In this document: positions 9,244 through 41,071 of the stretch, one piece after another
Layout: each line of letters opens with the position of its first letter
Position numbering within the stretch: the stretch's first letter is position 1
Source of the DNA: Sclerotinia nivalis
Taxonomy: Eukaryota > Ascomycota > Leotiomycetes > Helotiales > Sclerotiniaceae
Assembly: GCA_029531795.1 (NCBI GenBank)
Contig: JAPEIS010000009.1
Span: 62,001 to 126,000 of the forward strand
Direction of reading: 5' to 3'
Length of the DNA stretch: 64,000 nt
Notes under the pieces: generated by a model
What the model was told of the DNA's origin: nothing
Database searches by the model: none
What the model saw: the letters and a program-made list of their open reading frames with translations, nothing else
Translations under genes and position numbers: made by a program

Positions 9244-10206
9244 ATGTCAGAAACTCACATATACGAACCCAGTATCAGCAGAACTTCTCTACCATATCAT
9301 TCACTACTAAATCCTAAAATAGAGAACGACGAAGAACCATACCTACGAGACGTTGGAACGAGCAATTTGCGACAAAATTTTGTGTACGGAGTCATTGTCG
9401 GACTTCTTTGTGGATTGTCTATAATTCTGGTCATTTATACTGCGTTTTCATACGTTTCCAACTGGAGGTCGCCAAACACATTTCCTCCAGATTGTAAGTT
9501 TGGGAGTCCTTGGCGCGTCGAGGGCAATTAAATCTTTGACACTCATATCAAATAGTTCCCTTTCATCCCGTCATTTTTGAAGAAGACGAAATCTATGCGG
9601 CGGCCTCGAGTCCAGATACTAATGCAGCATGGGATAATTTGATGCCTCGTAAATCTCACTCATAACAATGCTTCTGAAGAAAATGCTGATGAATATTCAA
9701 AGCTGGGCGAGGTTTTGTTCTTGTCGAAAATCCGGAGAAATACGGTCTTCGACCAGGATTGCCATCAATAAACGGTCCAGATCGGTATTCCGTTTCTGTA
9801 TTTCACCAACTCCATTGCCTGGTAATTCCGCTTTCATTCATCTTCCCCTTTCACTCCTCTTCATCTTATTTGAACTCTCCTCTAACACCTCCAGGGCATG
9901 ATCCGCGAATCCTACAATTCCGCCCTCCTGGGAGTCAGGCCCCACATCCAAGGTGACGAAAACCTCTCCGACGAATCAGCTCAGGAATCAAACAAAGAAC
10001 ATATAGGTCATTGTTTTGACTACATACGTCAGGCACTCATGTGCTCTGCTGATATGACGATTGAGTGGGCAATGGAGATGCCGGATGGAAAGGCTCCATT
10101 TACAGTTGATGGATGGGGAATTACCCATACGTGTAGAAATTGGGATGATGTTCTGAAATGGATGGCCGAGCATAGGAGCCCGGTTAATTCTTCGGGGATT
10201 GCATGA
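9244..10206 (+). CDS. UstYa-family (DUF3328) oxidase-like protein 1
   Basis: Four exons, 9244-9493, 9556-9648, 9703-9821 and 9895-10206, give a 257-residue protein with every phase consistent. There is a cytosolic N terminus, one membrane segment (about 46-70), then a lumenal domain. Family hallmarks are present: an AAWDNLMPPGRGFV segment (about 106-119), a first HxxHC motif HQLHC (149-153) and a second, HIGHC (190-194), followed by FDYIRQALMC and a C-terminal GWGITHTCRNWDDVLKW. Both His/Cys motifs are intact. In ustiloxin, asperipin and cyclochlorotine pathways, UstYa proteins oxidise or cross-link ribosomal or non-ribosomal peptides. It lies tail-to-tail with a second UstYa gene and 3.4 kb before a repeat-bearing peptide precursor, which suggests it modifies that peptide. 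An alternative start at 9196 adds 16 residues but looks less natural. Confidence 0.9.
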
Positions 10207-10425
10207 GGAGTTTGCGTGGTTGATATAATGGATTATGTGAGGGGTGTTGCTGTTGACATAGTTTGGAATTTGTTTTTTTTTAGCCAGATAACCTCCTTCT
10301 TTCATATGCTCCATAAATTCAAATTATTCATTCGATGTTCTACATCTGGGTTCATGGGGAAAAATTTATCATACGTACTCCTCAATTTTCCTCCAGACTG
10401 CCCCCCTTCCAGTTCTCTTCAAAAA

Positions 10426-11400
10426 TTAACCTTCATACCCATCCTCCTCAAAAGACTCAACACTCAACCTCCACAACTCCTCCGGATCCCTACACTGTCT
10501 CTCCGTCATTCCATCCACATTTTCCTTCCCCCTCGAATCAGCTTTCGGTGGTTCAAGTGTCCCATCTGCAGTACACAATATCGTCTAGAGTTTTCAGTTC
10601 AAAATTAGCACTGAGCATTCAATATCTTTCTAAGCTCATCTGCTTTTCCTCATAATCAAAACTATAAGCCACAGCATATTCGCGCAAACTCCTTTACCTC
10701 GGAGATCCCAAAATAAAAGAAAAGAAAAGAAAATGGATAAGATGGATGAACATACCTGTCTCAAATAATCAAAACAATGCAACCAATGCAACGGATCCCC
10801 ATGTTCCAAGTGTCCAAAATTATGTCCTGCTCCCGCCCTTTTTTCCCTCCTTCCCCCCTCTCCATCTCTCTTCTCCCTCTTCCCCATATCACCCATTTTA
10901 AGCTCTCCCATTTCCATTTTCAATTCCTCCATCTCCCTAAACAGCTCCTGTACACCCCCCCTCATAATCCCCAAACAATGAAGAGAATGAAACATCGTAA
11001 TTCCATATTTATGTTTGTTTTTCTTGTCTTCTTCGCTCGCTACATCCTTCCCCTCCCCCTCCCTCCCACTTTCATTGTTACCAATAATTCTTAAAAATCC
11101 TCCATTTTCTGGAAGTAGTTCATCCCACAGCTCGTCGTATACATGCGAGAGATTTTCATAATTAGAATGTTCGGAGAAAACAACGGTTTTCGAGAAAGGC
11201 GAGTGCGAATTGAGGGAGTGAGGTACGGAGGGGTTAGATTGGTGGGATGATGGGGGTGAAGAGGTGTCTGATTTTGAGGGGGAGAAAAATGGTACAGAAG
11301 ATGTTTGTAGGAAATATATAAGTGTTGTGAGGATAATGGTTAGGAAGAGGAAAGAGATGAAAAGGGCTGAGGATTGCTCCGTGGAGCGGGGAGACAACAT
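10426..11400 (-). CDS. UstYa-family (DUF3328) oxidase-like protein 2
   Basis: Two exons, 11400-10756 and 10584-10426 (minus), joined in phase 0 (LRQ | TILCTADGTLEP), give 267 residues. A single membrane segment covers about residues 11-31. Motifs: DELWDELLPENGGFLRI, first HxxHC HSLHC (138-142), second HWLHC (205-209) followed by FDYLRQTILCTADGTLEP, and a C-terminal GMTERQCRDPEELWRLS typical of the family. Between the two HxxHC motifs is an unusual insert of about 40 residues rich in Lys, Glu, Gly and Met (153-193) that the first UstYa protein lacks. Two UstYa proteins beside one precursor is a common arrangement in dikaritin RiPP clusters, where both can be needed for cyclisation. The gene ends are 219 bp apart, so the two may share a terminator region. 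Confidence 0.88.
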
Positions 11401-13467
11401 TTCTTCTTCTTCTATGTCCTTTTGTCTAAATCATTAACTCGTGATTTGATTCCCAACCTTGCAGCATCATGAGAAACGTGTAACCAAAATCTATCTCTCA
11501 AATAATTCATAGAAATATTCCCATGATCGCTAGCTATCGATATCTCTATCAGTATTTTTTTTACCTTCCTATAAAAAACTAGTTCGTTCCTGCCAAGAAA
11601 AGAAGGGCTTGGCACCTTCCCCTTTGCTCACTCGTTTGGAAGGGGTAAAAATCCTCCTTTCGGCACCCCGCCGAGACCCGTTAGAGATGCAAGTGATCGT
11701 TCGTACTCGGCACTTAGACTTACAAGCCACTTACTGCATAAAGCTGTGGATTCACGATATGTACCCCGCTATCCCCAGCAAAGTCGTTCTCGTGGTAGTG
11801 GAATACTGGGCAGGTAGATAGAGATGATAGGTTATCACAACACAGAAGATTTTTTGTATGATAAAACTATGAAATACATGATTATTAATTCAAATCCAAG
11901 ACTGAGCTCGCGATCCTGCGTTTCCATGAATGTTATGTGCAAAATACGGTGTCTAGCACTCTTGATCTACACTACAATTCTAGATTGCTTTACCTTTCAT
12001 TATTCGTGGCCATTCTTCTCATCGCTTTTCCAGAAACTCCTAGATAAAATCAGTAACAATCAAGCCTCGTGACAACAACGAAAAAGGACAGCCCAAAAAC
12101 AAAATGCCTCATAATTACAACCAAATCTCTCCACACACATCCCAGATTCGACACTCATGCACTCCCAACTGTCAGCTGCAGCCATTTTTAGGTCCAATAG
12201 TGAAAGCAACAGCAATATTTTATAACCCATCATTATGAGCCACATAATATCCGTACAATGATCTATATATCGCAACAGTGATTCAAGTCAATAGTGATGG
12301 GCTAATAGGAGCCACATAAATATTCTTGAACAGTACTTAAACAATGTTATTCATGCAATCATGTCGAGCTTGGCGAGATAGCCTCCGAAAAGGTTCGTTG
12401 AGGGCATGTAGGTGTGGTTGAGGAGGCGAATTCGAGGATATCAAAAAGATGTTTTGGTTTGGCTGTAGAGCAAACCTTTGTTAGCGTCGGAAGTTTAGTA
12501 TTGTGCGTTTTACGACGCTGTACCCTATCATACATCTTCTAATTCCGACACATTTCTCTCTTGAAGGGATTTCGGCCTTCGAGAGGTGTATTAATGGTAA
12601 CCCTTTCGTAGGATCCTGATTCCTGAGCTGCTACATTGCTATGCGACATTAGTTGTGGCGTGGTCAACCCATTAGGTCCAGGTCATGATCCGATGGCAAA
12701 ATCGAGAAACAATCTTTGCAATCGTCTTTCCGCTTTCGGACATTGAATTATCGGGAAGGGCAGACATGATGCCCGAAAGATTCAAAGATGCCCGAATGAG
12801 AACTTAGCTCCACGTTTTCGGAAAAGACCTGGAGCCACATCGGCCGAAGGCAATGCTGTTCAACCATCCCAAAACATCCCGTTCATCTTGCAGCACACTA
12901 CTCAATCCCACATGATGCATGTCAAACATGCACTCACAGAAATGCACAGCATATCGCGTATCGCAACATGACCGTTTTCTCACCGCTGCCACAGTGGCGC
13001 CATGCACAGATGCTAAATATCACATTGTCTACTCGGCCAGAGTTTTGTGCAATAAATGGCGCCTCTAGAAAGGTCGAGCTACTTAACTTGATGGTAGCGA
13101 CTGGACTTTACTCAGTCCTTGAGCAGCTAGTTTGCAGATAAAGAAGCACGATACAATGGATGACCATGAGAGCTGGCATGGCGGAGAAAAGGCAATGCAA
13201 GTTGAATGTCTCGTTTTAGCAGCAAGGATGAAAGAGGCAATAACACGCGAGATATCAACGAACTGGACAATGAGCAAATCAGTGCTTGCGATGTTTTCTC
13301 AAAGCCCTATCAATCCATGCGGGGTGGATGAAATAATCCTCAATCAAACACTCCGAGGAACTTCTTTGACACGTCTGTCGGGACAGCGGGGGTGAAAGGA
13401 AAGTTCTCTGAGTAAAACACTACCCGGCTCGATAAGCTGGGGAGACAACATATATCCCAACTTCTGG
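11401..13467. other. 2.1 kb between the UstYa pair and the precursor
   Basis: I looked here for further RiPP tailoring genes (tyrosinase, methyltransferase, FAD oxidase, transporter, Zn2Cys6 regulator) and found none. The only open frames are below 90 codons, for example 13132-13395 (plus, 87 codons, charged, no motif). The sequence may hold promoter elements for the second UstYa gene and for the precursor, or decayed genes too worn to read. Confidence 0.5.
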
Positions 13468-13475
13468 TATATAAT
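13468..13475 (+). promoter_or_regulatory. TATA box of the peptide precursor gene
   Basis: TATATAAT lies 117 bp before the precursor ATG and is followed by a pyrimidine- and CA-rich leader (CACAACACTTTCAGTC) that looks like a short 5' UTR. A clear TATA element in a short compact promoter suits a small, strongly or conditionally expressed secreted-peptide gene. Confidence 0.5.
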
Positions 13476-13591
13476 ACCTTCCAATTACCAGTCCACAACA
13501 CTTTCAGTCAGCTTAAGACAGTCTCAGAACAATTTACTCTATCGAGCACCATTCCAACAGACCTACCTAACTCCTACAATCCGTCATCACC

Positions 13592-14024
13592 ATGCATTTC
13601 CAGTCGCTCTATTTCGCATCAGCTGCACTTGCAATGACCATCATGGCAGTCCCGATCATCGAAGCCAACTCTCTCAGTATATCCACCACTTTCTATTCTA
13701 TATTTGAATTTCACTAACATCAATATCACAGCCACGCGCACAGAGAATGTTCCTCGAGGGTTCTTCAATAACGGGGATGCAGGAGATGTGAAGCGGGGAT
13801 TCTTCAACAATGGGGATTCAACAGATGCTTCAAAGCGAGGATTCTTTAACAATGGTGATGCCGAGTCAGATGTGAAGCGGGGATTCTTCAACAATGGAGA
13901 TTCCACAGAAGCTTCAAAGTGTAGCGGAACTAAAGAAGAGCGCGGATTTTTCAACAATGGTGATGCCGAGTCAGATGTGAAGCGGGGATTCTTCAACAAC
14001 GGGGATGCAGGATCAGATGTTTAG
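13592..14024 (+). CDS. secreted multi-repeat peptide precursor (dikaritin-type RiPP candidate)
   Basis: Exon 13592-13676, intron 13677-13731 (GTATAT, branch CACTAACAT, ACAG), exon 13732-14024; 125 residues. Residues 1-25 are a signal peptide (hydrophobic core ALAMTIMAVPII). From residue 37 the protein is six copies of R-GFFNNGD, with Gly at 38, 51, 65, 79, 100 and 114. They are separated by short Asp/Ser/Glu/Ala spacers ending in Lys, so that four junctions read Lys-Arg (49-50, 63-64, 77-78, 112-113), classic Kex2 sites. Cleavage would give peptides of about 12 residues starting at or near GFFNNGD. Signal peptide, tandem near-identical cores, Kex2 sites and nearby UstYa genes match UstA-like dikaritin precursors. 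The core has Phe-Phe where known dikaritins usually have Tyr. Alternatives are a Kex2-processed pheromone-like or effector peptide. The product is unknown. Confidence 0.88.
13755..14021 (+). repeat. coding tandem repeat, six units of about 42 bp
   Basis: Each unit encodes RGFFNNGD plus a 5-6 residue spacer and Lys. Start-to-start spacing is 13, 14, 14, 21 and 14 codons. Units differ mostly at third positions, and spacers come in two kinds (A(E/G)SDV or AGDV, versus ST(D/E)AS) in alternating order. The longer gap is caused by 21 extra bases at 13920-13940. Confidence 0.9.
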
Positions 14025-14520
14025 GAACGTGATGCAGTGGAGGATAGATATGGGTATTATCCTTATAGTGATAAGCAACGAAGAGGAATTGATGGAAGAG
14101 TCAAAGGAGGTGGAATGAGAAATAATAGTATTTATCATAATGGTAGGCTTTGCTTTTGAAGTGATGGTGGAGGATGGTGGGAAACTATCATATTGATGCA
14201 GTATTGAAGTTGTGTCTATTTTCAACAAATGACAATTATCATCTTTTCTTCATCAGTCAGAATAAAGTGCTCTTCATCTGGAAAACTTGAATCTACGATC
14301 TCATCTTCTTTGGTACCTGATGAAAAAATATGCAACAAGGGAATACCACTTTGATTATTTTGGCCTTATTCGTACAGACTCGCATATAAAAATTGGTTAA
14401 ATTGATTTACAGAGTTGAGAAGTGGATAGTCTATACACGAGATAAGCCTAACTGTACGCCTTTCTCCCATTTCCCAACCTTCCATCTACACTTACAAATG
14501 TACAAGAAAGAAGTGCAGCT
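14025..14520. other. convergent 3' region between precursor and COX15
   Basis: Contains the precursor's 3' untranslated region and the COX15 terminator region. I see no gene. AT-rich stretches near 14225-14390 could supply polyadenylation signals for both. Confidence 0.4.
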
Positions 14521-16122
14521 TCAAGAAGTCTTTGCAGCTATTGATGCACTCTGCATTGCAGAATGCTTCGTCCTAACGGTTTGTGCTGTCAACTTTCTTC
14601 TCAAAATAGCCATGGTTCTTTTTGGGATCCAGACTCTACTGCCTAACACCACTACACCTGTCAATAATGCCAGACTTCCAGCTTGATGAGCAGAAGCAAG
14701 AGGAGTAGGTACTAGATATATCAAAGTACTGATACCCAAAGTAACTTGCATCATCAGAAGATGTACTACACCCATCATGCCTTGTGCCCCAGTCTTTGGG
14801 AGAGCAGCTTTAACCTTGGGATTAAAGCGTGAATATGCCCAAAGAGCGAGGATAGCCGTGAAAGATGTAGTGGCTAGTATCCGGTGGTCGAGTTGTACTG
14901 TTGATGGATTCTCGAGCATGTTACGCCACCACAAGTCACTATGATCTGGTCGTCGAGAGTAAAATTCTGAAAAGAGTTCGGATTTAGGTGGGGTGAGCCC
15001 CTTACCCATTCGAGGAAATTCGTTGTAGATAAGCCCTGCATCGAGACCCGCTACCAATCCACCAGACATAGCTGTTGTGAAGACAAGGAGAGCAAGGCCG
15101 GCAACGGATTTTCGAAATGCGGATAAAGAGGGTGAAGATAGGCGGAGAAGATGTGCATGAGCCTGAGCGGGCGTGGTACCGAATAATAAACGGTGATCGC
15201 GAAGAATCGAGAGTCCATTCCAAAGCATCGCAGTGTAGCATATAAAGGCAGTGCCAAGATGCGTGGTAAGCCTATATTGGGAAACTCGGGGATGAGAGCC
15301 AGGGGCGAAAAGATCATCCTTCAATCCTGACTTAACCATCCACCAACCAATACCTCCCTGGAAGCCAATAAGCCCTGATATTCCAAGTAGACGAAGAGCC
15401 ATGGGCTTGGAAACTTTACGGCGAGCGACGAAGTAGACGGCTGGGATGACGAATGAAAGCCCAATGAATCGTCCCCATAATCGATGAAACCATTCCATAA
15501 AATATATCTTCTTAAATTCTTCCATTGTCATATGTGGATTCAGAAGCTTAAATTCTGGCGAGGCACGATATAAGTTGAATTCACTCTCCCAATCTGCAGC
15601 GGAGAGGGGTGGAAGAGACCCGGTAACAGGTTTCCATTCGGTAATACTAAGACTTGAAGGGAGTTAGCAAGATGCTCTGTATGAAGGTATTTGCAGATAG
15701 GAAGAACGAAGTATGTATTCAAAAAGATCTTTATCATAATGCACATACCCAGATTCTGTCAAGCGTGTAAGGCCTCCAAATACGACAATTCCAAATACAC
15801 TCGCAGCGCTTCCCAATAACCAATAACCCACCGATTTCGAACTTGTTTCCGGAAATCTGCTGCGTGATGATTCTTTGTTTATTGTTTGACTCGATTTACT
15901 TAATGAATCGGCCAGTGAACTGAGTGGAGAGGCTCCATTAGCAGATTCAGTAATCGTAGCAATATTGCTATTGAACCGAATTGAGCGGGATGATGGGGAT
16001 TTGGCGGGGAATTTCGTCTGTCTCAATATGGATCGAGGTTGTTTCAAGCATTGATGACATATAAAAAAGTCCCTAGATAATCTAGGGACCGTCTTCCTCA
16101 GACCGGGTAATATTGAAGCCAT
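14521..16122 (-). CDS. COX15: heme A synthase, mitochondrial inner membrane (COX15)
   Basis: Exons 16122-15749 and 15652-14521 (minus), with a 96-bp intron splitting TESG|LSITEW, give 501 residues. The N terminus is basic and Ser/Arg-rich, a mitochondrial targeting sequence. Then follow FGGLTRLTESGLSITEWKP, the family signature, and FMEWFHRLWGR, HLGTAFI, LDHR and SAHQAGS, whose histidines are the heme ligands of the eight-helix COX15/CtaA fold. The enzyme converts heme O to heme A for cytochrome c oxidase. Length and order are normal for fungal COX15. It is a core gene and only a neighbour of the RiPP block. Confidence 0.97.
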
Positions 16123-19938: not shown

Positions 19939-21099
19939 GATTGCTAAGATTATTTTTCTGATTGTATTGTCCGGATTGGTGGTCTTGTTTTTAAATCAAT
20001 TTGTTTTTTCTTTTTTGCTTCTTTCTTTCTTCGAGGGGGAATGCAATGTGGTCACTAGAAATGAATTAGAACGAAATTCAGGTAGAACTTATAGAAGTTT
20101 CTTGTCTCCATCTTCGGGTGTGGTCGCGTCATAGTACATAATAAACTTTCTACTAATCCCTCTAATAATTGACAGATTGAAGATCACCCGATAATGAGAT
20201 GAATGTAGACTGCTTCTGGTATAAGTTCTAATGTATGCTGCGCTAGTAGTGCTTGGGTTTGACCAAGGTAGATAGTGGAATCGGTGATTGGTGAGATCGA
20301 GGTTCGCTATTAGGCGGGTATTTTCTAAAGCTGGTATTGCCCCCTATCGGTTCCTGGTGAGATCGAGGTTCGCTATTAGGCGGGTATTTTCTAAAGCTGG
20401 TATTGCCCCCTATCGGTTCCTGGTGAAGCCCGGAGCGGGGATTGCACATGCATCGAAGAGTATTTCCAATTTCAAATCCTCCAAACTACAAACCATTCAA
20501 TACCACGATTTACGCTTCCCCTCCATCCATATCCTCAAAACATGCTCGATAATTTTAGCCCACGCCAAATCTATCGTTTAGCGCTAGCCTCCTAGCTTAA
20601 CGGTTTCGCTAACTTTAACGGGACTACCGAAAGACACCGTCATTACATCAAAATCGCGAGACTCTAGTGTGGAAAATTAGTTGACATTTACCAAGTTGTG
20701 GTTTGCCCGCCCGACTTAGCATTTGAGCTAAGGTTCATTCAGGAAAGATTTGAGTTTGGGTTGGAGTTGCTGTGGTACTAAGCGATTGCCTTAGCTGAAT
20801 AAAGAGATGCAGAGATGTTTGATACAAGTTTATGCCATCATAGTGATTCTCCCGACTGCGTCTCCGAAGTTTCCAATCAGGAAAAGCAGACTTGCTGCAA
20901 GCGAGAGTACACAGCACATTTCACGTATCGCTGCTAGAATGAGCGAAAATCAAGAAGCCGCCAGAAGATGCCGTAGCCAGAGGCGTTTGTGTTGGATTGG
21001 AAGGAGCCATGGTTCGTAGACTCAATCTTGCACCCAAGAATTGAAAACTAAGAAGGTGAGTTCCTTGTACGTTGCCAGCATGATCGATCTCCACAACGC
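19939..21099. other. gene-poor stretch with a tandem duplication
   Basis: It starts with the promoter region of the acidic membrane protein, followed by the 66-bp duplication listed separately. I see no convincing gene. The small open frame at 20807-21019 has random composition. Confidence 0.4.
20290..20421. repeat. 66-bp direct tandem duplication, two copies
   Basis: Two adjacent copies (20290-20355 and 20356-20421) appear identical over 66 bp and are followed by the start of a third (GGTGA). Because 66 is a multiple of three, the repeat stays open in frame on the plus strand (22-residue unit) and also on the minus strand. Identity suggests a recent event. Confidence 0.9.
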
Positions 21100-26708: not shown

Positions 26709-28621
26709 TTACTCCTTGGACGAAAACCATTGAACAGATCTTCGCGTGGATGTTGAATTCGAAGTAGTTGTGTTACCAGTCCGGCACATCCTCCCCTCGG
26801 CCGCTACATGCCACTCCTCACTACCCACAGCAGTTGTTGCGTAAAAGAGATGATCTGGATCCCATTTGTTTTTGATGCCTAGTAAGGTGTCGTAATTCTT
26901 CCCGTAAAAAGTTTCCTGCCAATTGCTCTGTCTGAAATTATCTTCATTCAGATAAGCTCCTCCACCAGGGGTAAGTGCTTCGAATTGAGGGATAATCTTA
27001 TTTACCATAAAATACTGTGCAGCTACCATTTCGGATATTGGTGCGGAATAATTCCAAGGTGTAGTCATGATCACATGGATAAGAGTGTCGCGCCAAGCCG
27101 GAAGAAGGGAATTATCCACAGTGGAGGTAATCTGAGGAGATGAGACATTCAAGGCGACACCTGTGTAGGGTATACCATAATTGGTAACATTACGGATTGT
27201 AGCGACATAGGCCTTATTTTTTTCCTGAATGACACTTCTTGGTATTAATCGGCCTCCACCAGAATTTATTCCTGGCCCACCCCAAGGACCATATGGAAGA
27301 GGGCCAAGGTAGTTGTTGTAGTGTTCAAGGTACGTTGGGTACTCTGTAAATGCCACTGTATAATTAATGCCCAAAGTCGTGAGTCCACTGGTGAAGTTGG
27401 TAAATAGACCTCGTACGTCAGATTGAGTCTTATTATATGCCGTCATACCAATTATGCGGAAAGATGTAGAGGAAACACCATATGCAACCATAGTTCCTGC
27501 ATCGACCATGGCAGGAAGGTAAGAATGGAAGGCTTCGACTCCCGTCCAGAATGTTTCGATACTCGAATTACCAGCGGCTGCTGAGAATGCCAGAGATGCA
27601 CCGCCGACGACTGTATCAGGATATACCCTAACGGTAAGAGATATGACAACTCCATAGGTACCTCCTCCACCACCGCTCAGAGCCCAATAGAGATCCGTGT
27701 TTTCGGTTCTCGAAGCAGTGACTACTTTCCCACTAGCTGTCACAACTTTCCAGGAAAGCGTCTGATCAGCACCCATACCAAAATTACTGGCGAGAGCGGA
27801 ATGACCACCTCCTTGAGTGTAACCTCCGGCGATTCCAACCGTGGGACATTCACCACCTATTGTCACGAAGCCTGCCTCGTGAGCAGCCTCTAGAGCTTCG
27901 AAGCCTTGAACGCCAGCACCAATTGTCATTGCTTTGCCAGTGTAATATTCAGATGACCAGTCAGAGAATGAGATACTCTTTAGGTTATGAGTCCAAACCG
28001 CCAATGCACTTGCACCGGTCGATTTCCCCAGATAGCTTGTAGAGATTTAGCGAAATATTAACATCGGAGTTCCATTCAACGGACGCTTACTCATGACCAG
28101 TATTTCGGATTACAAATCGAATATTATGACGCTTTGCAAAGTGAATGGCAGCAATGACGTCCTCAGCTTTCGACACGTTAACAGCATAATCGACTAAGTT
28201 TCCCAAGCGACAGGGACTTGATTCGGAAGAATAAGGATCGCAGCTCTGGTTTCCGAGTATAGCAAAGTATGGAGCTATCAATGAAGCAGATGAATTAAAA
28301 CTAAATGAACATAAGCCTACTGATATTAAAATCGGTGGCATTCCAAATGACTTACTGCAAACTTGGGTTGGCCCAGTTAGCTTGTAGATATGCGCATTCA
28401 GTTTCATTGTAATTGGGATCATGACAAGGGCTCGCGATGGGTATCGTAGCTACCAATCTACCATTAACCGTCTTGTTGAGTTTATTCCACTCTATTCCAG
28501 ATGGCCATGATGGGTCTCCAAGTAGTGCTCTGCAATTGGAATTCTCAATGTTCTGTGCAGATGCTGTACATAACAGCTGAAAAAGAAGAAATAAAAGTTT
28601 ATTCAACACCATTGTCTTCAT
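26709..28621 (-). CDS. secreted FAD-linked oxidoreductase, berberine-bridge-enzyme-like
   Basis: Exons 28621-28356, 28300-28091 and 28035-26709 (minus) give 600 residues. A signal peptide (about 1-22, LLFLLFQLLCTASAQ) precedes the mature chain. The VAO/BBE FAD-binding domain shows DYAVNVSKAEDVIAAIHFA, VIRNTGHDYLGKS (His that links FAD in BBE enzymes), TIGGECPTVGIAGGYTQGGG (Cys at the second covalent FAD site) and DLYWALSGGGGGTYGVV. The C terminus has the BBE tail NKWDPDHLFYATTAVGSEEW. Many N-glycosylation sequons are present. Such enzymes oxidise alcohols, sugars or secondary-metabolite intermediates; the substrate is not evident. The N-terminal Met was chosen because it begins the signal peptide directly, although the frame extends further upstream. 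Confidence 0.92.
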
Positions 28622-30530: not shown

Positions 30531-32571
30531 ATGTTCGCCGACGAGAAAATAGGTGCGGAGACGCACCAAGAACATGTAGGTGACATTGCGGTAAAAAGGA
30601 GTGACAGAGCTGACAAGTTGAACGTAGAAGGACGAGAATAATGTAGCCCAAGTCAAGGTGGTGAGCGGCGATCAGGCTTTTGCGCAAGCAATGTTGAAGG
30701 AGCCACCAAAAACGTGGTCAGGTCGATCCTTCATACTATACGCCTGCGCCGTGGTAGCTTTCTTCTGCAGTACATGCAACGGATTTGATGGCTCCATGTT
30801 CAACTCCCTCCTCGCAATGGAGCAATTTAGAAAGTACTTTAACGTGGAAAACGATGGTGCTTGGACGGGCATAGTTACATCGATGTATTCGATCGGGAGC
30901 GTTGTTTCTATTCCTTTCATTGGACCAGCGATTGATACTTGGGGAAGAAAGGTCGGTATTTATATTGGAGCATCATCGATTGTCTTGGGAACAATAATTC
31001 AGTCCACCACACTCCACTCGAGTAATGCGATCGGACAATTTATGGGCGGTAGATTTCTACTTGGATTTGGTGTGGGAATAGTTGCATCGGCGGGACCAAC
31101 GTGCGTAATGACAACTCTTAAGTCAAGCTGAAAATTTTAAAAGCTAACTTGTCACAAGATATGTTGTTGAAACGTCGCATCCTGCCCATCGAGGAGTTGT
31201 CACTGCTGTAAGTCCATATAACTCTCCAAATATAGGCGGTGAAACTGACTAGCCTCATAGTTCTACAACACATTTTGGTTAGTTTATACATAATACACAA
31301 TAATTCATACCCTTCAAGACAGTCAATTTATTTCGACCTCAACTTCACCAGAAAACCCATAGCTAACCTGACCTAAGGTTTGTTGGCTCAATCCTTGCTT
31401 CTGGAGCTGCACGGGGAAGTGCAAATCTAACTGGCAATATGTCCTGGCAAGTTCCAGTCTGGCTGCAAATGGCATTTCCGGGACTTTGCATCCTCCTGGC
31501 ATGGGCTCTTCCCGAAAGTCCACGTTGGCAATATGTACACGGTCAACGAGACAAGGCGAAAGCAATGCTTACACGATTTCATGGCGAAGGGAATCCGAAT
31601 AGCGTTTGGGTCGAAATGCAGCTTAATGAGTATGAAGAGTTTTTGGAGCTGGATGGCGCCGATAAAAGATGGTGGGATTATCGAGCACTGTTTAAAGACA
31701 GAGCTTCAAGATATCGTTTAGCCTGCAACTGCACTATCGCTATATTTGGACAGTGGGCTGGAAATGGTATATCAAATACTCTACTTATGATCCAATATGC
31801 TGACTCGATGTTAAGGTCCACTTTCGTACTTCATTTCAGCTGTCCTTGACACGGCAGGAATCACGAACTCGATAACACAACTTAACCTCAATCTGGGTCT
31901 AAATGTCATGCAATTTGGGCTGGCTCTATTCGGTGCTACGCTCGTGGATAAAGTTGGGCGCCGTCCATTACTATTATTCGCAAACATCGGGTGCGCCATA
32001 GTATGGATCGGAGCCACAGTCTCATCATCCATCAATGCCAACACAGGTAGCAGGAGCAGTGGCGCAGCTGTTGTGGCTATGATATTCCTCTTCGATGCCA
32101 TCTTCAGCATAGGTTTTACACCATTACAAGCATTGTATCCTGTCGAAGTCCTGAGTTTCGAGATGAGGGCCAAAGGAATGGCATTCAGCAACTTTGCTGT
32201 GTCAGCAGGTATGTTCTTCCTAGCTTACTCTCTCACTTTTTTGAGCTAACCACAAGTGCTAGCGACTCTTGTAAATCAGTTTGCATATCCTGTGGCTCTG
32301 GAGAAGATCAAATGGAAGACGTATCTTGTTTTTGTGATTTGGTGTCCAATCCAAGCTCTTGTGATTTACTTCTTTATCCCCGAGACGAAGAACCGTACTG
32401 TAAGTTGCACTCGGAATTCTGTGAACAATGAGCACATCTGACCCTATACTATAGTTGGAAGAATTGGATAACATCTTCCGAGCCAAGAACCCAAGGAAAG
32501 CATCTCTGGAGAAAAGGAAATTGGCTCTTGACGATAGTGCAAACGTTGTGAAAGTGGAAGAAGTTTTTTGA
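30531..32571 (+). CDS. MFS sugar transporter
   Basis: Eight exons: 30531-30575, 30628-31100, 31159-31207, 31261-31277, 31378-31766, 31816-32208, 32263-32399, 32455-32571. They sum to 1620 bases, 539 residues, with all phases consistent. Signatures of the MFS sugar porter family run in order: FDGSMFNSLLAM (TM1), GRKVGIYIGAS, GRFLLGFGVGIVASAGPTYV, SHPAHRG, WQVPVWLQMAFP, LPESPRWQYVHGQRDKA (PESPR), WAGNGPLSYF, DKVGRRPLLL and PETKNRTLEELDNIF. Twelve helices are expected in the plasma membrane. Relatives in fungi carry lactose, hexoses or other sugars, and the substrate is not readable. Exon 4 is only 17 nt (FYNTF plus two bases). The first intron (30576-30627) is needed to avoid an in-frame stop. 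Confidence 0.9.
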
Positions 32572-35345: not shown

Positions 35346-36847
35346 TTGATTGATTGATTGATTGATTTAATTAACGTCCACACTAAATCAAAGACTATCT
35401 AGGACGGTTAAGAGCTCAATCGAGCTCTTAACAGATAGCTATGGGTAGTACTATCTAAATAGCATACAGGTTTGTATATATTTTTGATAGGGGAAATGAA
35501 AACTAATACTAAAAAGCAAAGCCCGACCTCTATACGACATCGCATATAAAGATAAAAATACCAATCAAAGCATTACACTCATGATTTTCCAAATCCAATC
35601 CCTCCATCAATCAAATCCAAACAACCTTCCTTCACATCAACTCTTTGTCCTATTCGTAACTTCCCAACAATCATGCCTTGCCTAATATCGACTTCATAGA
35701 ACCCTCCAAACCATAAGAATATTAATCCTACAAGGTACCCCAATCCTATATATAGTATATCCTCCACCGAATTCTATAACAGATACATCATTAGCTCGGA
35801 TCGTTCCATATAACTCCTCTAAGTATATAAATTGTTGTTGTTTCGATTCGAATCGAAAAAGATAAAGCCTGAACCTCAAAACCGAATTTGATAAATCGCA
35901 TCCGATGCCCCAAAGGGATTTTGGAGATGATTTTGTAGTATATTATCGTAAATGATAGTGTTGTCCTTTGTTTCGTAATAAAAGTAGTATTGTAGAAAGC
36001 ACAATCCGATAATACGATTATCAAAAAACCGAGATCTGGTTTTTGCTATCAGCCAATTCGGAAGCAAAAAAACATCGCGATCGGATACCTCTTCCTCTTC
36101 CAATCACCACAACTCCATCAAATGACTCAAACTTAGCTCTGCAAACTCTAATAATTAAATAAAAGAGCTAGAGGTTCGTAAAGGACACCGCGTACAGGTG
36201 TTGAGTCTTGTCCTCCAATATAACCTTCATATTCTTCTTTGAAGAATATATTTGAATCATATTCTGATCCCATTTTTGAAAGGAAGAGCGGAAGATTTAT
36301 TTTTACTTTTTATTTTGTCTTTGTTCTATAAAGCATTTATCCGATCAGAAGATTAAATCCCATTCCTCCGTTTTAAGGCCCCTCCATACTAAGCACTATG
36401 CAAATCGTTTAAGTATATATTCTGATGTAAATTCAGGTTTCTTTCTAGCTCTCCAATTGTTTATTTCATATACATAAAAGATCCTCTTGATAATATCCCT
36501 TTTGCAATCAAGCCCACAAACTGTAATAATTTCCTAATAGATCGATTTGGGTTATAAACGTATATACTATATCATTATACATTCGTCTCTTTCTGAATAA
36601 CACTTCTGTTAGGGTTTTTTGAATAAGGATTTGCCTTCATTGTGCAATTGATTCATCTTAATAGTATTATATATAGTAGTACAGGCTATTCCAAGATTAT
36701 TCGCAATTTTAGTGGATCCTGTACCTTTTGAGGCTTTTCCAATAATTCTACTATGATCATATAGGCTAAGATGCTTTTGAGGAATATTATTATTATCAAT
36801 TGATCTTAATGGAGTGCGTTGTGATGGTATAATTAATAAATAGAATA
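35346..36847. other. AT-rich filler with a possible relic gene
   Basis: It begins with a TGAT microsatellite. On the minus strand between 36103 and 35579, overlapping frames read MEEEEVSDRDVFLLPNWLIA..., then QQQFIYLEELYGTIRANDVS..., then GGFYEVDIRQGMIVGKLRIG. These could be three pieces of one small decayed gene linked by tiny gaps, but I could not find normal introns. The rest is AT-rich and unreadable. Confidence 0.35.
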
Positions 36848-36957
36848 ACGTGGTTTATCAGTGGGTCGGCCATATCAGTGGGTCGGCCACTTTTACCTCG
36901 AATTATTGATTTAAAGCTATATTATTCAACAAAAACTAAATCAATTGATTGAAACTA

Positions 36958-38601
36958 TTAAGAATCTAATAATCTAGGATCAATTATACTATTTTGACAA
37001 ATTCTTGAATTGTGATTAGTCTTTCTATATTTACTACAGTATCGATTAGAAGATGCTTCTTTATTAGAATTCCCCCCATTTTGACGCTCATCGCATTGAA
37101 TCTGAATATCAACCTTTTGCTGAGATAATATATCTTCAGTTTCTTATTCAGTAAATACTCCTTTATTACATAATTGAATCTTTTTAGTGCATCAACATTT
37201 GCTTAATACTACATTTGCCTTCCGAAACATACGATTCTCTGTATTTAAAAGAATATTCTAATGGGTTAATCTTTCTGTATCTTTAGTTAGAGCTAATATA
37301 GTCTCGAATATAGATATAGGAAAACTTGATTGATGATAAGCCATTCAAGATTTTACTAAAATCGATTATGAAAGAGCTTTAATTGGATTATAAAGTATTT
37401 GAAAGATCCAAGAGTTTAGATCGACAAATGGAGGGGTAGGTGTACAAATCCGAATATCTAATTTTGAGAGTATAGCTTGAAGATCAAATGATATTAGACT
37501 TGCTTTTTGGAAACTAGCTTTTATATTTTGAATTGTGATTGATTATTGATATATAGCTTTAAAAGCTATAAAGAATTCAATTTTAATGATATAATTGATA
37601 TAAGCTTTAATAAATCCATCAATTTGATAACTATATACCTGTTTCAATACGCCAAAACAGCTAACGTTAAATGGTTGAATTAAATGACTTGAATGTAGTG
37701 GTAATCTTATACATATAATATTATTTGCCTTGCAATATGATTGAAAAGGTATCGATTCGTGATTTTCGTGTTTATCTAGTACTAGTATTCGATATTTGCC
37801 CTTTGTTCGATGAATTGTATGCTTATCGAAATGCTTTATCCATTCCAATCCTGTCTCATTATTCGTCTATCCATTGGAAATAGGTTTAATAGCCCAATCT
37901 ACAGGAAAACCGTTTTCTGTATACCAATTAGAAAAATGATATTACTCTTGAACCATCAGAAATGAAGATATAGTTTCCCCTTTACTATTACCATATATAA
38001 TCGCTATAACCCATTCTCTATTGTTTGATTATATTGCTTTACTTCTACCATTCCGTTCAGCACTAGTTACAACCATTCCGGGATATATTATACTTATCAT
38101 AAAACTAGTTTCGTCGAAGTTGTAGAAATCACAATCCAAGATACCATATTTCGCCTGTATATTCAATACCAATTGAAACCACTCTCCAATAAGCTTAGGA
38201 TCCTCGCAGAGAGCTCTTTGGAAGTCATAAACACAACTAAAACGCATCTTTAATTTTGTACATCGTTGTATAAAGCGATAAGCCCAAAACTTTCCAACTT
38301 TCTTCGCACCCCGCGTTTCGAGTATATAATTCGCTATATCTTCAATACTACTTAATTTAAATGAAAATCCTCTATGATCTATATCAAGTATATATTGAAT
38401 AAGTACCTCCTTTTCTAATTCAATCAAATTATGACTTTTTGGTCGAATTTCAGCTATACTAGGTTTACCTCGAATTCTATCACCCAATGTAGATCTAGAT
38501 ATACAATAGAATTGAGCTGCTTTTCGAATTGTTAATTTTTTATTTGATTCAATAGCCTGAATAGCTAAGATTATATATGCTTCTTTAGAATGAATTTCTA
38601 T
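36958..38601 (-). pseudogene. pogo/Fot1-like transposase of the outer element
   Basis: One continuous frame of 548 codons without indels, aligned codon for codon with the inner transposase. The start is ATA where the inner copy has ATG. About nine internal stops occur, for example where the sister copy has Trp (SNGWTNNE). Visible parts: an HTH/CENP-B-like N terminus (TIRKAAQFYCIS), the first catalytic block CDFYNFDETSFM, the second KYRILVLDKHENHESIPFQS, then a C-terminal Cys-rich tail. The substitutions look like RIP transitions. Not functional. Confidence 0.88.
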
Positions 38602-38639
38602 AGTTGATAATGAAGAAAACGCGTATTAAGTGTAGACTA

Positions 38640-40491
38640 ACATGGTTTATCAGTGTGCGGGTTATATCAGTGTGTGGGTCACTTTCATCTCAATTCAATC
38701 TCTTCTCTTTCAATACGCGTTTTATCAACAATCTACAATGAATTCGAATAACCAAGAAGCTTGTATACTCCTCGCTATTGAAGCTATTCAAAAAGACAAA
38801 AAAATAAGCATTCGAAAAGTTGCGAAGATATATAATATCTCGAATACAATACTACAGTATAGAATTAATGGTTTTACTCCTCGCTTTGAATATCGACCTA
38901 AATCTTATAATCTTTCAGAACTAGAAGAGAATATCATTTCTGAGTATATACTCGATATGGATATAAGAGGATTTCCATCTAAACTCAGAAATGTGGAAGA
39001 TATAGTGAATCATATTCTTGAATCGAGGGGTGCAAAGTATATTGGGAAGCTCTGAGCGTATCGATTCGTAAAGCATCGAATCGAATTAAAGATACGTTTT
39101 AGTTGTGTTTATGATTTTCAAAAAGCTCTCTACAAAGATCCTAAGCTTATTGAAGAGTGGTTTCGATTGGTTTCGAATATGCAAGCGAAATATGGTATTC
39201 TCGATAGCGATTTCTACAATTTCGACGAAACAGGCTTTATGATGAGGATTATATGTGCTGCAATGGTTGTCACTAGTGCTGAAAGATGCGGTAGAAGTAA
39301 ATCAGTACAATTAGACAATCGAGAATAGGCTACAGCAATAATATGTGGAAATGAGGAAGGTAAAACCATACTCCTATTTCTAGTAGTTCAAAGATAGGTT
39401 CATCTTTCCAATTGGTATACCGAAACTGACTTTCCTGCGGAATGGGCTATTAAACCTACATCTAATGGATGGACAAACAATGAGACAGGTTTAGAATGGT
39501 TGAAACACTTCGATAAGCATACTAAGAATCGAAGAAAGGGCAAATATCGAATGTTGGTACTAGATGGGCATGAAAGCCATGAATCAGTACCTTTTCAGTC
39601 GTATTGCAAAGAGAATGATATTATTTGTTTAAAATTACTACCACATTCAAATCATTTAACTCAACCATTTGATGTTAACTGTTTTAGTAGCCTGAAACGT
39701 TCATATGGTACTCAAATTGATGGGTTTATCAAAGCACATATCAATCATATTTCGAAAGTTGAATTCTTTATAGCTTTCAAAGCTGTATACCAAGAATCAA
39801 TTACGATTCAGAATATGAAATCAGGGTTTCGAGGAACAGGTTTAATACCATTTGATTCTGAAGCTGTACTTTCGAAACTAGATATTCGAATTCGCACACC
39901 TACTCCCCCCTTTTTCGATCAAGATTTATAGACTTCTCAAACCCCTCACAACCCAACTGAAGCTTTTTCACAATCGATTTTAGTAAGATCTCGAATGGCT
40001 CGTCATCAATCAAACTCTCCTATATCTATATTCGAGATTGTATTAGCTTTAGTTAAGGGTACAAAGAGATTAGCATATGAAAATACACTTTTAAATGTAG
40101 AGATTCGTATACTTCGGGTAGCAAATGAGGTATTAAGCAAGTGTCGACGTACAAAAAAAACTCAATTACGTCAAGGAGGAGTGCTTACTGAATAAGAGGC
40201 TATCGATATATTATCTCAACAAGAAATTGATATTCAGATTCAACACGATGAGCGTCAAAAAGGGGGGAATTCTAATGGGGAAGCATCTTCTAGTCGATGC
40301 TATAGTAAGTATGGAAAGACTAGGCATAATACAAGGACTTGTCAAAATAATGTAATAGATCCTAGATTATTAGAATCTTTATAGTTTTAATCAATTGATT
40401 TAATTGTTGTTGAATAATATGGGTTTGAAAGAGTGAATTGAGGTGAAAGTGACCCACACACTGATATGATCCGCACACTGATAAACCACGT
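38640..40491. mobile_element. inner pogo/Fot1-like DNA transposon, 1.85 kb
   Basis: It is inserted at a TA (38638-38639 and 40492-40493) only 59 bp from the right end of the outer element. Ends read ACATGG... and, inverted, ACGTGGTTTATCAGTGTGCG, about 60 bp of inverted repeat with a few differences that are all transitions. As in the outer element, each end has two tandem TATCAGTG-type blocks. It carries one plus-strand transposase pseudogene. The two families share the outermost GTGGTTTATCAGTG, so they are related but distinct. Confidence 0.93.
38738..40384 (+). pseudogene. pogo/Fot1-like transposase of the inner element
   Basis: 549 codons from MNSNNQEACILLAIEAIQKD to LLESL in a single frame with five internal stops, at 39053, 39326, 39395, 39929 and 40193. 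The first replaces a Trp preserved in the outer copy (FWAYRF); others are TAG/TAA where CAG/CAA is likely, all expected of C-to-T/G-to-A decay. Catalytic blocks: DFYNFDETGFM, MLVLDGHESHESVPFQS and HLTQPFDVNCF (DDD triad of the DDE_1 family). The tail RCYSKYGKTRHNTRTC resembles a CCHC zinc knuckle that has lost one Cys. Not functional as it stands. Confidence 0.9.
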
Positions 40492-40552
40492 TAATAATTC
40501 GAGGTAAAAGTGGCCGACCCACTGATATGGCCGACCCACTGATAAACCACGT

Positions 40553-41071
40553 TATAGGTTGTAGAAATGAAACACGTAAAAATTTATATTTACGCGTTTT
40601 CGGCCATTATCAGTGCACGGTTACTGTACGCACCAGATCGATGCGAGCATAAGCTGCTCGAAAGAAGCGCTATCCTATATGGAAGTATTTTTGTTGTCTG
40701 CGGACACTGGCAAATTTGTTTCTTTTGGAGGGAAACCACGCCGTGTTTGGTGCTCGGTCCTTTTCTCTTTAGGCACAATGAGGTGCAAAAATATCACAAT
40801 AATAAAGCTTTACATCCATGACGACTTCAAGATTTCAGCCAATCGCCCTAGAGCGAACGGTCTACCACGTTGAACTATGTAGCTGGAGTTAGTCAAGATA
40901 GTTGGGTTGAGTAACGGAAGCAAGATCGGGTATACTCAATGTTATATATCAAGAGAAGTGACTTTGTGAGAACAGATCGATCCATGTTGCTTTTTAGCAC
41001 AGCTATGCTATTGTATGGTGCAGTATTGATAAATGATAACGTACTCGTCCCTTCGTATGAATGCTGAATTC
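40553..41071. other. right flank of the transposon island
   Basis: About 500 bases of ordinary composition with overlapping short frames (40567-40873). No supported gene. Confidence 0.4.

What the first reader, a model, noticed from the sequence alone, without database searches (positions are those of the whole stretch)
9244..14024. Candidate new dikaritin-type RiPP cluster: six-repeat precursor plus two UstYa oxidases
Seen: a 125-residue protein with a signal peptide and six GFFNNGD repeats, four preceded by Lys-Arg, lies 2.2 kb from two UstYa-family genes, each with two intact HxxHC motifs. Known: ustiloxin, phomopsin, asperipin and epichloecyclin pathways combine Kex2-processed repeat precursors with UstYa proteins. 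Inferred: this locus makes a modified peptide from the Phe-Phe-Asn-Asn-Gly-Asp core. No core of this sequence among the dikaritins I know.
Basis: partly seen in the sequence, partly recalled or inferred. Interest (0 to 1): 0.92.

Follow-up and report, generated by a model that had tools for sequence, protein, structure and literature searches.

The report
Likely Phe-Asn-core UstYa peptide locus
A relative of the white-mould fungus carries a small gene set that probably makes a secreted, enzyme-modified peptide from six copies of one seven-residue motif; this kind of gene set is known and common in moulds, but I found no description of this family or its tyrosine-free motif.

Summary
In Sclerotinia nivalis a 125-residue secreted-type protein (13592-14024) carries six GFFNNGD repeats, four after Lys-Arg. 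Two UstYa genes (PF11807), each with two HxxHC motifs, lie at 9244-10206 (+) and 11400-10426 (-). Homologous precursors occur in six Botrytis/Botryotinia species and one unnamed record; in B. sinoallii precursor and second UstYa gene bear consecutive locus tags. Across 40 repeats from eight precursors F2, F3 and N5 never vary; all six variable core sites in the window are third codon positions. Of 16 other UstYa loci sampled in this genome 3 hold Kex2-type repeat frames; 0 of 5 arbitrary 9-kb regions do. Very probably a UstYa-type ribosomal peptide pathway, a catalogued kind (22% of 7878 such precursors lie near a UstYa gene). Distinctive: no tyrosine in the repeats, no tyrosinase match in the window. 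Against certainty: seven of seven relatives carry a constant Tyr-rich tail that a stop codon removes here, one Kex2 site is absent, and two close UstYa1 relatives lack a motif histidine. No expression, product or chemistry is shown.

The parts
13592..14024 (+). Repeat precursor gene: exon 1 13592-13676, intron 13677-13731, exon 2 13732-14024; 125 aa, six GFFNNGD repeats
   Evidence: homologues P0001-P0007; no Pfam family for the window's protein
13758..14006 (+). Six 21-nt GFFNNGD copies (13758, 13797, 13839, 13881, 13944, 13986); all 6 variable core sites are third codon positions
14022..14075 (+). Stop codon TAG, followed in frame by sequence resembling the Tyr-rich C-terminal tail of the related precursors
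9244..10206 (+). UstYa1 (S. nivalis OCU04_007991), 4 exons, 257 aa, long N-terminal helix in the model, HQLHC and HIGHC
10426..11400 (-). UstYa2 (S. nivalis OCU04_007992, 100% identical), 2 exons, 267 aa, long N-terminal helix in the model, HSLHC and HWLHC
13468..13475 (+). TATA-like sequence about 120 nt upstream of the precursor ATG (seen by eye)
   Evidence: Sequence printed; inference only
14521..16122 (-). COX15 (haem A synthase) gene: housekeeping neighbour to the right of the set

Best explanation
The three genes form a minimal UstYa-type ribosomal peptide pathway. The precursor enters the secretory route by its signal peptide (inferred). The Golgi protease Kex2 cuts after Lys-Arg and releases peptides that begin G-F-F-N-N (sites shown, cleavage inferred; 11-12 residues once the KR is trimmed, repeats 4 and 5 perhaps staying joined). 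UstYa1 and UstYa2, probably membrane-anchored, with the paired HxxHC motifs thought to be the active site, oxidise side chains of the F-F-N-N block: dehydrogenation or a Phe- or Asn-centred cross-link (inferred; the bond is unknown). The product is exported. Because neither tyrosine nor, as far as seen, tyrosinase is involved, the chemistry should resemble victorin's Phe cross-link more than the Tyr ethers of ustiloxin.
For: Gene models and motifs. Related precursors keep G-F-F-N-N: G 38, F 40, F 40, N 39, N 40 of 40 repeats in eight precursors, the window's included (related species, not independent). Within the window's six copies 6 of 6 variable core sites are third codon positions (P = 1.3e-4), while linkers differ in amino acids. 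Before the 40 repeats: KR 29, PR 8, ER 2, RR 1. Repeat-precursor scan: 3 of 16 other UstYa loci sampled in this genome (about 23 others by my grouping) hold Kex2-type repeat frames; 0 of 5 arbitrarily chosen 9-kb regions do. A Kex2-type P-domain gene is present on C5. Prior: 22% of 7878 repeat precursors lie within 15 genes of a UstYa gene, most often at the next position; pheromone precursors do so with three exceptions only (PMC7329392, passages). Victorin is described as cyclised through a Phe side chain (PMC9233826, passages).
Against: No transcript, peptide or mass is available. The repeats lack Tyr, whereas 65.6% of UstYa-associated repeats contain it and the three other repeat precursors found in this genome all do. 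All 7 of 7 related precursors have a C-terminal tail with GYYYTYTD that the window's gene lacks, so the tail could be the real substrate. One Kex2 site (before repeat 5) is absent here (...SKCSGTKEER), against SKR at that place in P0003. S. trifoliorum UstYa1 (P0009) and unnamed record P0014 lack the first His of the second motif, hinting at decay in parts of the group. Sclerotinia and Botrytis genomes are generally collinear (recalled), so shared adjacency is weaker than it looks. No precursor was returned from B. cinerea, S. sclerotiorum, Monilinia or Ciborinia, although each returned UstYa1 or UstYa2; unannotated short genes or clustering of the database at 90% may explain this. The scan's threshold was set after seeing its output, and 0 of the 8 narrowly seen UstYa loci held a repeat frame.
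Confidence: 0.52

Rival explanations
1. The real UstYa substrate is the Tyr-rich C-terminal tail of the precursor, as in Botrytis; the GFFNN repeats are by-products or recognition elements. S. nivalis, which lacks the tail, is then a non-producer with a decaying pathway.
For: Tail GYYYTYTD identical in 7 of 7 related precursors and preceded by KR in 6 of 7; ustiloxin, phomopsin and asperipin cross-links use Tyr; tail-like sequence lies in frame after the window's TAG; one Kex2 site absent in the window; motif His lost in two close UstYa1 relatives.
Against: The repeats are also strongly constrained at F-F-N-N (40 of 40 at three positions, 39 of 40 at one) and are multiplied, as expected of a core. 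Both UstYa genes in the window keep both motifs. The window's six copies differ only silently in the core.
Confidence: 0.2
2. The precursor is an ordinary Kex2-processed repeat protein giving unmodified peptides (signal, surface-active or structural, like pheromones or smut repellents); the UstYa pair is an unrelated neighbour acting on another substrate.
For: Most repeat precursors (78%) have no UstYa gene within 15 genes. UstYa-family proteins also occur in non-ribosomal and polyketide pathways (PMC12048977, passages). The repeats lack Tyr.
Against: Adjacency also in B. sinoallii; no other biosynthetic core gene among the window frames scanned (19 of 34 frames of 150 aa or more); in this genome 3 of 16 other UstYa loci sampled hold repeat precursors against 0 of 5 arbitrary regions.
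Confidence: 0.18
3. A relic locus in S. nivalis: inherited pathway no longer expressed or productive.
For: Tail absent, one Kex2 site absent; precursor not returned as a deposited S. nivalis protein.
Against: Open frames, canonical GT-AG introns, both HxxHC pairs kept, silent-only change in the cores.
Confidence: 0.1

Closest known systems
Victorin pathway (Cochliobolus victoriae)
   Same: Multi-core, probably Kex2-processed precursor; cyclised through a Phe side chain rather than Tyr (review PMC9233826, passages); UstYa-type proteins in the victorin cluster (recalled)
   Different: Different core; victorin is chlorinated and its cluster has further enzymes; here only two UstYa genes are seen and no product is known
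Dikaritins: ustiloxin, phomopsin, asperipin-2a
   Same: Signal peptide, repeated cores with Kex2 sites, one or more UstYa proteins close by
   Different: Their cores hold the Tyr that is cross-linked; ustiloxin and phomopsin clusters also carry a tyrosinase and further enzymes; none seen here
Epichloecyclins (Epichloe GigA)
   Same: Multi-copy secreted precursor of a plant-associated fungus, cyclic products
   Different: Tyr-containing cores; identified products
Catalogued Kex2-processed repeat proteins with a DUF3328/UstYa gene nearby (Umemura 2020, 1758 cases)
   Same: This locus fits the catalogue's definition; Botrytis and Sclerotinia are among the genera in its Table 2
   Different: Whether the GFFNN type is in its supplementary table could not be checked (no supplement access); the main text has no FFNN

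Membership tests
Dikaritin / UstYa-type fungal RiPP | Precursor with secretion signal and repeated cores separated by Kex2 sites | tested here: met
   Six repeats, four after KR; signal peptide judged by eye only
Dikaritin / UstYa-type fungal RiPP | One or more UstYa (DUF3328, PF11807) genes with two HxxHC motifs close to the precursor | tested here: met
   distances 2.2 and 3.4 kb
Dikaritin / UstYa-type fungal RiPP | Tyr in the core as cross-link donor (ustiloxin, phomopsin, asperipin) | tested here: not met
   No Tyr in any of the six repeats; one Tyr in the whole protein, in the signal region. Not universal: victorin uses Phe, and about a third of UstYa-associated repeats lack Tyr
Dikaritin / UstYa-type fungal RiPP | Tyrosinase in the cluster (five-gene definition of Ding et al., as told in PMC12048977; later found not to be required) | tested here: not met
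   18 tyrosinase pieces in the genome (20 candidates scored), none in C9:62001-126000
Dikaritin / UstYa-type fungal RiPP | Cluster-encoded peptidase or transporter | tested here: inconclusive
   19 of 34 window frames of 150 aa or more were scanned: an M20 peptidase domain and a sugar transporter lie about 42 and 17 kb away behind other genes; the only S41 hit of the genome is on C8. Short exons were not scanned
Dikaritin / UstYa-type fungal RiPP | Modified, cross-linked peptide derived from the core | not testable with these tools
   Needs LC-MS/MS and deletions
Kex2-processed repeat protein (KEP) | Secreted precursor with near-identical repeats and Kex2 sites | tested here: met
Fungal alpha-type pheromone precursor | Known pheromone family match; no UstYa neighbour | tested here: not met
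   No Pfam family at E 0.1 for the window's precursor; only a weak Integrase_2 hit (best E 0.063) in 2 of 8 members; UstYa neighbours present

The most novel reading that the evidence does not exclude
A tyrosine-free UstYa pathway in which two UstYa oxidases alone, without tyrosinase, install new Phe/Asn side-chain bonds (for example Phe beta-carbon to Asn amide, or a Phe-Phe link) on a conserved Phe-Phe-Asn-Asn core across Botrytis and Sclerotinia, with the Tyr-rich tail serving as a recognition segment dispensable in S. nivalis.
Probability: 0.25. Interest if true: 0.62.

Novelty: new member of a known kind. Interest (0 to 1): 0.45.

Why it matters
Only five dikaritins had been reported by late 2022 (PMC10512285, passages) against 1758 catalogued precursors with a UstYa gene nearby. 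A three-gene, tyrosine-free example present in a widely studied group of plant-associated fungi would be a clean test of what UstYa enzymes do to Phe and Asn. The contrast with the Tyr tail of the Botrytis precursors gives a natural comparison of which segment is the substrate.

Tried and rejected
Rejected: chance repeat or misread frame (silent-only core changes). Rejected: alpha-type pheromone (no family match, UstYa neighbours). Considered and left out of the set: the BBE/FAD oxidase at 26709-28046 and sugar transporter at 30628-31849, because COX15 and other open frames intervene. Led nowhere: PDB sequence search with UstYa1, 0 hits at E 0.1; fold search of the UstYa1 model (mean pLDDT 77.1), best E 2.1; UstYa2 model of low confidence, 55.7; a bacterial promoter scan, not meaningful for a fungus. 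Literature (listings only unless said): 'GFFNNGD' 0 papers; 'GFFNN' 6 papers, all unrelated by title; 'UstYa'+'Botrytis' 12, 'Kex2-processed repeat proteins' 14, 'Sclerotinia'+'RiPP' 194 with 30 listed, 'DUF3328'+'Sclerotinia' 8, 'victorin'+'UstYa' 3, 'UstYa'+'phenylalanine'+'macrocycl' 3, 'Botrytis'+'Kex2'+'RiPP'+'repeat' 1, the Umemura survey, 'Sclerotinia nivalis'+'genome' 26 with 15 listed; I saw none by title that describes this family. PMC6339444 has no Botrytis, Sclerotinia or FFNN in its main text. Supplementary tables could not be opened. PMC12143957 and PMC7533671 are not held. Fungal genomes other than the window's own could not be searched, so adjacency in relatives rests on locus tags.
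Full report
Where it is. The window's UstYa2 protein is 100% identical over 267 aa to Sclerotinia nivalis OCU04_007992, and UstYa1 matches OCU04_007991 (93% identity as listed; the deposited model is shorter). Contig C9 of the window's genome has the same length (2,654,634) as the contig listed for both. S. nivalis belongs to Sclerotiniaceae, Helotiales. The window is C9:62001-126000 of a 50.3-Mb, 31-contig assembly.

The observation. The precursor gene has two exons (13592-13676, 13732-14024) and encodes 125 aa: a hydrophobic N-terminus, a short pro-part ending VPR, and six GFFNNGD repeats with linkers AGDVKR, STDASKR, AESDVKR, STEASKCSGTKEER, AESDVKR, AGSDV. Four repeats follow KR, one PR, one ER. 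The six 21-nt cores differ at six sites, all third codon positions (hypergeometric P = 1.3e-4); the linkers differ in amino acids. The degenerate DNA pattern occurs nowhere else in the genome. UstYa1 (257 aa, four exons) and UstYa2 (267 aa, two exons) match Pfam UstYa and hold two HxxHC motifs each. My UstYa1 model is 17 residues longer near the N-terminus than the deposited S. nivalis protein (P0008, 240 aa); homologues P0009-P0013 and P0015 carry the same stretch, P0014 lacks it like P0008.

Relatives. A search of about 5.8 billion proteins (clustered at 90%) returned 7 with E <= 0.1 among 388 candidates: Botrytis deweyae, B. hyacinthi, Botryotinia calthae, B. paeoniae, B. byssoidea, B. sinoallii and one unnamed record. 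The window's own precursor was not returned as a deposited protein, so it seems unannotated. Counting all eight precursors, 40 repeats show F2 40/40, F3 40/40, N5 40/40, N4 39/40, G1 38/40, while position 6 is N, G, A, E or D. In B. sinoallii the precursor is EAF02_001157 and the UstYa2 homologue EAF02_001158, on contigs of the same length. That is the only species for which both tags of one annotation were visible (1 of 1). B. cinerea, S. sclerotiorum, Monilinia and Ciborinia each returned UstYa1 or UstYa2 but no precursor. UstYa1 homologues: 63 at E <= 1e-20, 59 with two HxxHC; UstYa2 homologues: 18, all 18 with two. The four UstYa1 exceptions are P0009 (S. trifoliorum, Tyr for the first His of motif 2), P0014 (Asp there), P0015 (Ciborinia, motif 1 missing, possibly a gene-model gap) and P0025.

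The missing tail. All 7 relatives have a C-terminal tail containing GYYYTYTD. The window's gene stops at TAG (14022-14024); the same frame then continues with a tail-like stretch to about 14075. The S. nivalis protein thus has only one Tyr, in the signal region. This cuts two ways: it leaves the Phe-Asn repeats as the only candidate core here, or it means that the pathway's real substrate has been lost here.

Context within the genome. The UstYa family gave 47 matching pieces from 50 scored candidates (a lower bound), which I group by position into about 24 loci including this one. A script looked for open frames with repeated short words (5-mers, 4-mers); I took as repeat precursors those with at least three copies and at least three dibasic sites, a threshold set after seeing the output. 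Of 16 other UstYa loci sampled, 3 hold such a frame: C4:1047935-1048627 (KRFVPTVVPYADY..., ten copies), C7:1583645-1583875 (YPDYRR, four) and C16:1010013-1010312 (VAYAWAVDAEE, four), each with a signal-like first exon upstream. All 3 were among the 8 loci seen with wide flanks; 0 of the 8 seen narrowly. None of 5 arbitrarily chosen 9-kb regions had one; L047 has a seven-copy word frame but no dibasic site. In the rest of the window the nearest miss is a three-copy frame with two dibasic sites (a 66-nt tandem repeat near 20289); L042 also has a three-copy frame with two, and L051 a second frame over the threshold that is the antisense of its precursor. All three precursors have Tyr in the repeats; the window's does not. 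The C7 locus also has a tyrosinase (C7:1585494-1586134), the classical dikaritin set; no tyrosinase or S41 peptidase match lies in the window. A Kex2-type P-domain gene is on C5 (two pieces).

Literature. Umemura 2020 (PMC7329392; section 6 part 1 and passages): of 7878 Kex2-processed repeat proteins, 1758 (22%) have a UstYa/DUF3328 gene within 15 genes, mean distance 3.09 genes, peak at the next gene; 65.6% of their repeats contain Tyr against 38.2% without a UstYa gene; Botrytis and Sclerotinia are among the genera of its Table 2. Graham-Taylor et al. 2020 (PMC6941272; passages; authors' names recalled): four adjacent pairs of DUF3328 genes in S. sclerotiorum, two in co-expressed clusters, one proposed as a RiPP cluster on chromosome 3; whether the present pair is one of the four was not determined. 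PMC9233826 (passages): victorin is cyclised between a Phe side chain and an internal Leu. PMC12048977 (passages): the double HxxHC motif is the suspected active site and UstYa-type proteins are not exclusive to ribosomal peptides. PMC10512285 (passages): five dikaritins reported, and UstYa homologues are also needed for desaturation in phomopsin. A reference list (PMC12186524, passages) cites a 2025 paper on a copper-dependent DUF3328 macrocyclase, which I could not open.

Mechanism. Shown: gene structure, motifs, repeat constraint, adjacency in one relative, sister loci in the genome. Inferred: secretion, Kex2 cleavage after KR, UstYa oxidation of the F-F-N-N block, export. The bond is unknown; with no Tyr and no tyrosinase seen I expect a Phe- or Asn-centred oxidation. 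AlphaFold2 gives UstYa1 (deposited form P0008) an N-terminal helix of 38 residues (pLDDT about 97 in its middle) and a mixed domain (mean 77.1 overall); UstYa2 is poorly modelled (55.7). No solved structure was matched by UstYa1, by sequence or by fold; UstYa2 was not searched.

Verdict. A probable UstYa-type peptide pathway, about 0.7 for the three genes being one unit and 0.5 for the GFFNN repeats being the modified core. It is a new member of a known and catalogued kind; the specialist interest is the tyrosine-free core, the absence of a tyrosinase, and the tail that is constant in the relatives and lost here.

Noticed in passing
L051 (G000:C4:1047935-1048627), near UstYa pieces at C4:1050740-1054142: Second repeat precursor of this genome: ten copies of KRFVPTVVPYADY..., Tyr in each, signal-like first exon; another candidate UstYa peptide locus.
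   Followed up: partly
L042 (G000:C7:1583645-1583875) with UstYa pieces C7:1584470-1590022 and tyrosinase C7:1585494-1586134: Repeat precursor with four YPDYRR copies, several UstYa pieces and a tyrosinase: looks like a classical dikaritin cluster.
   Followed up: partly
L041 (G000:C16:1010013-1010312), UstYa pieces C16:1011470-1012832: Repeat precursor with four VAYAWAVDAEE copies beside two UstYa matches.
   Followed up: partly
window 14022-14075: Stop codon before a tail whose GYYYTYTD is identical in 7 of 7 relatives; tail-like sequence persists in frame after the stop.
   Followed up: partly
P0009, P0014: UstYa1 of S. trifoliorum and of an unnamed record lack the first histidine of the second HxxHC motif, a hint of pathway decay in parts of the group.
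   Followed up: no
window 36845-40555: An inverted pair of pogo/Fot1-like elements (HTH_psq/Tc5 domains at 38029-38625, DDE_1 at 39398-39931): 1607-nt arms 78% complementary, 63-nt ends 100%.
   Followed up: no
window 26709-28046 (-) and 30628-31849 (+): Berberine-bridge-type FAD oxidase and a sugar transporter; possible small metabolic set, separate from the finding.
   Followed up: no
G000:C1:3885081-3887552 and C11:1286621-1287954: Tyrosinase matches within about 2 kb of UstYa matches; possible further dikaritin loci not inspected.
   Followed up: no
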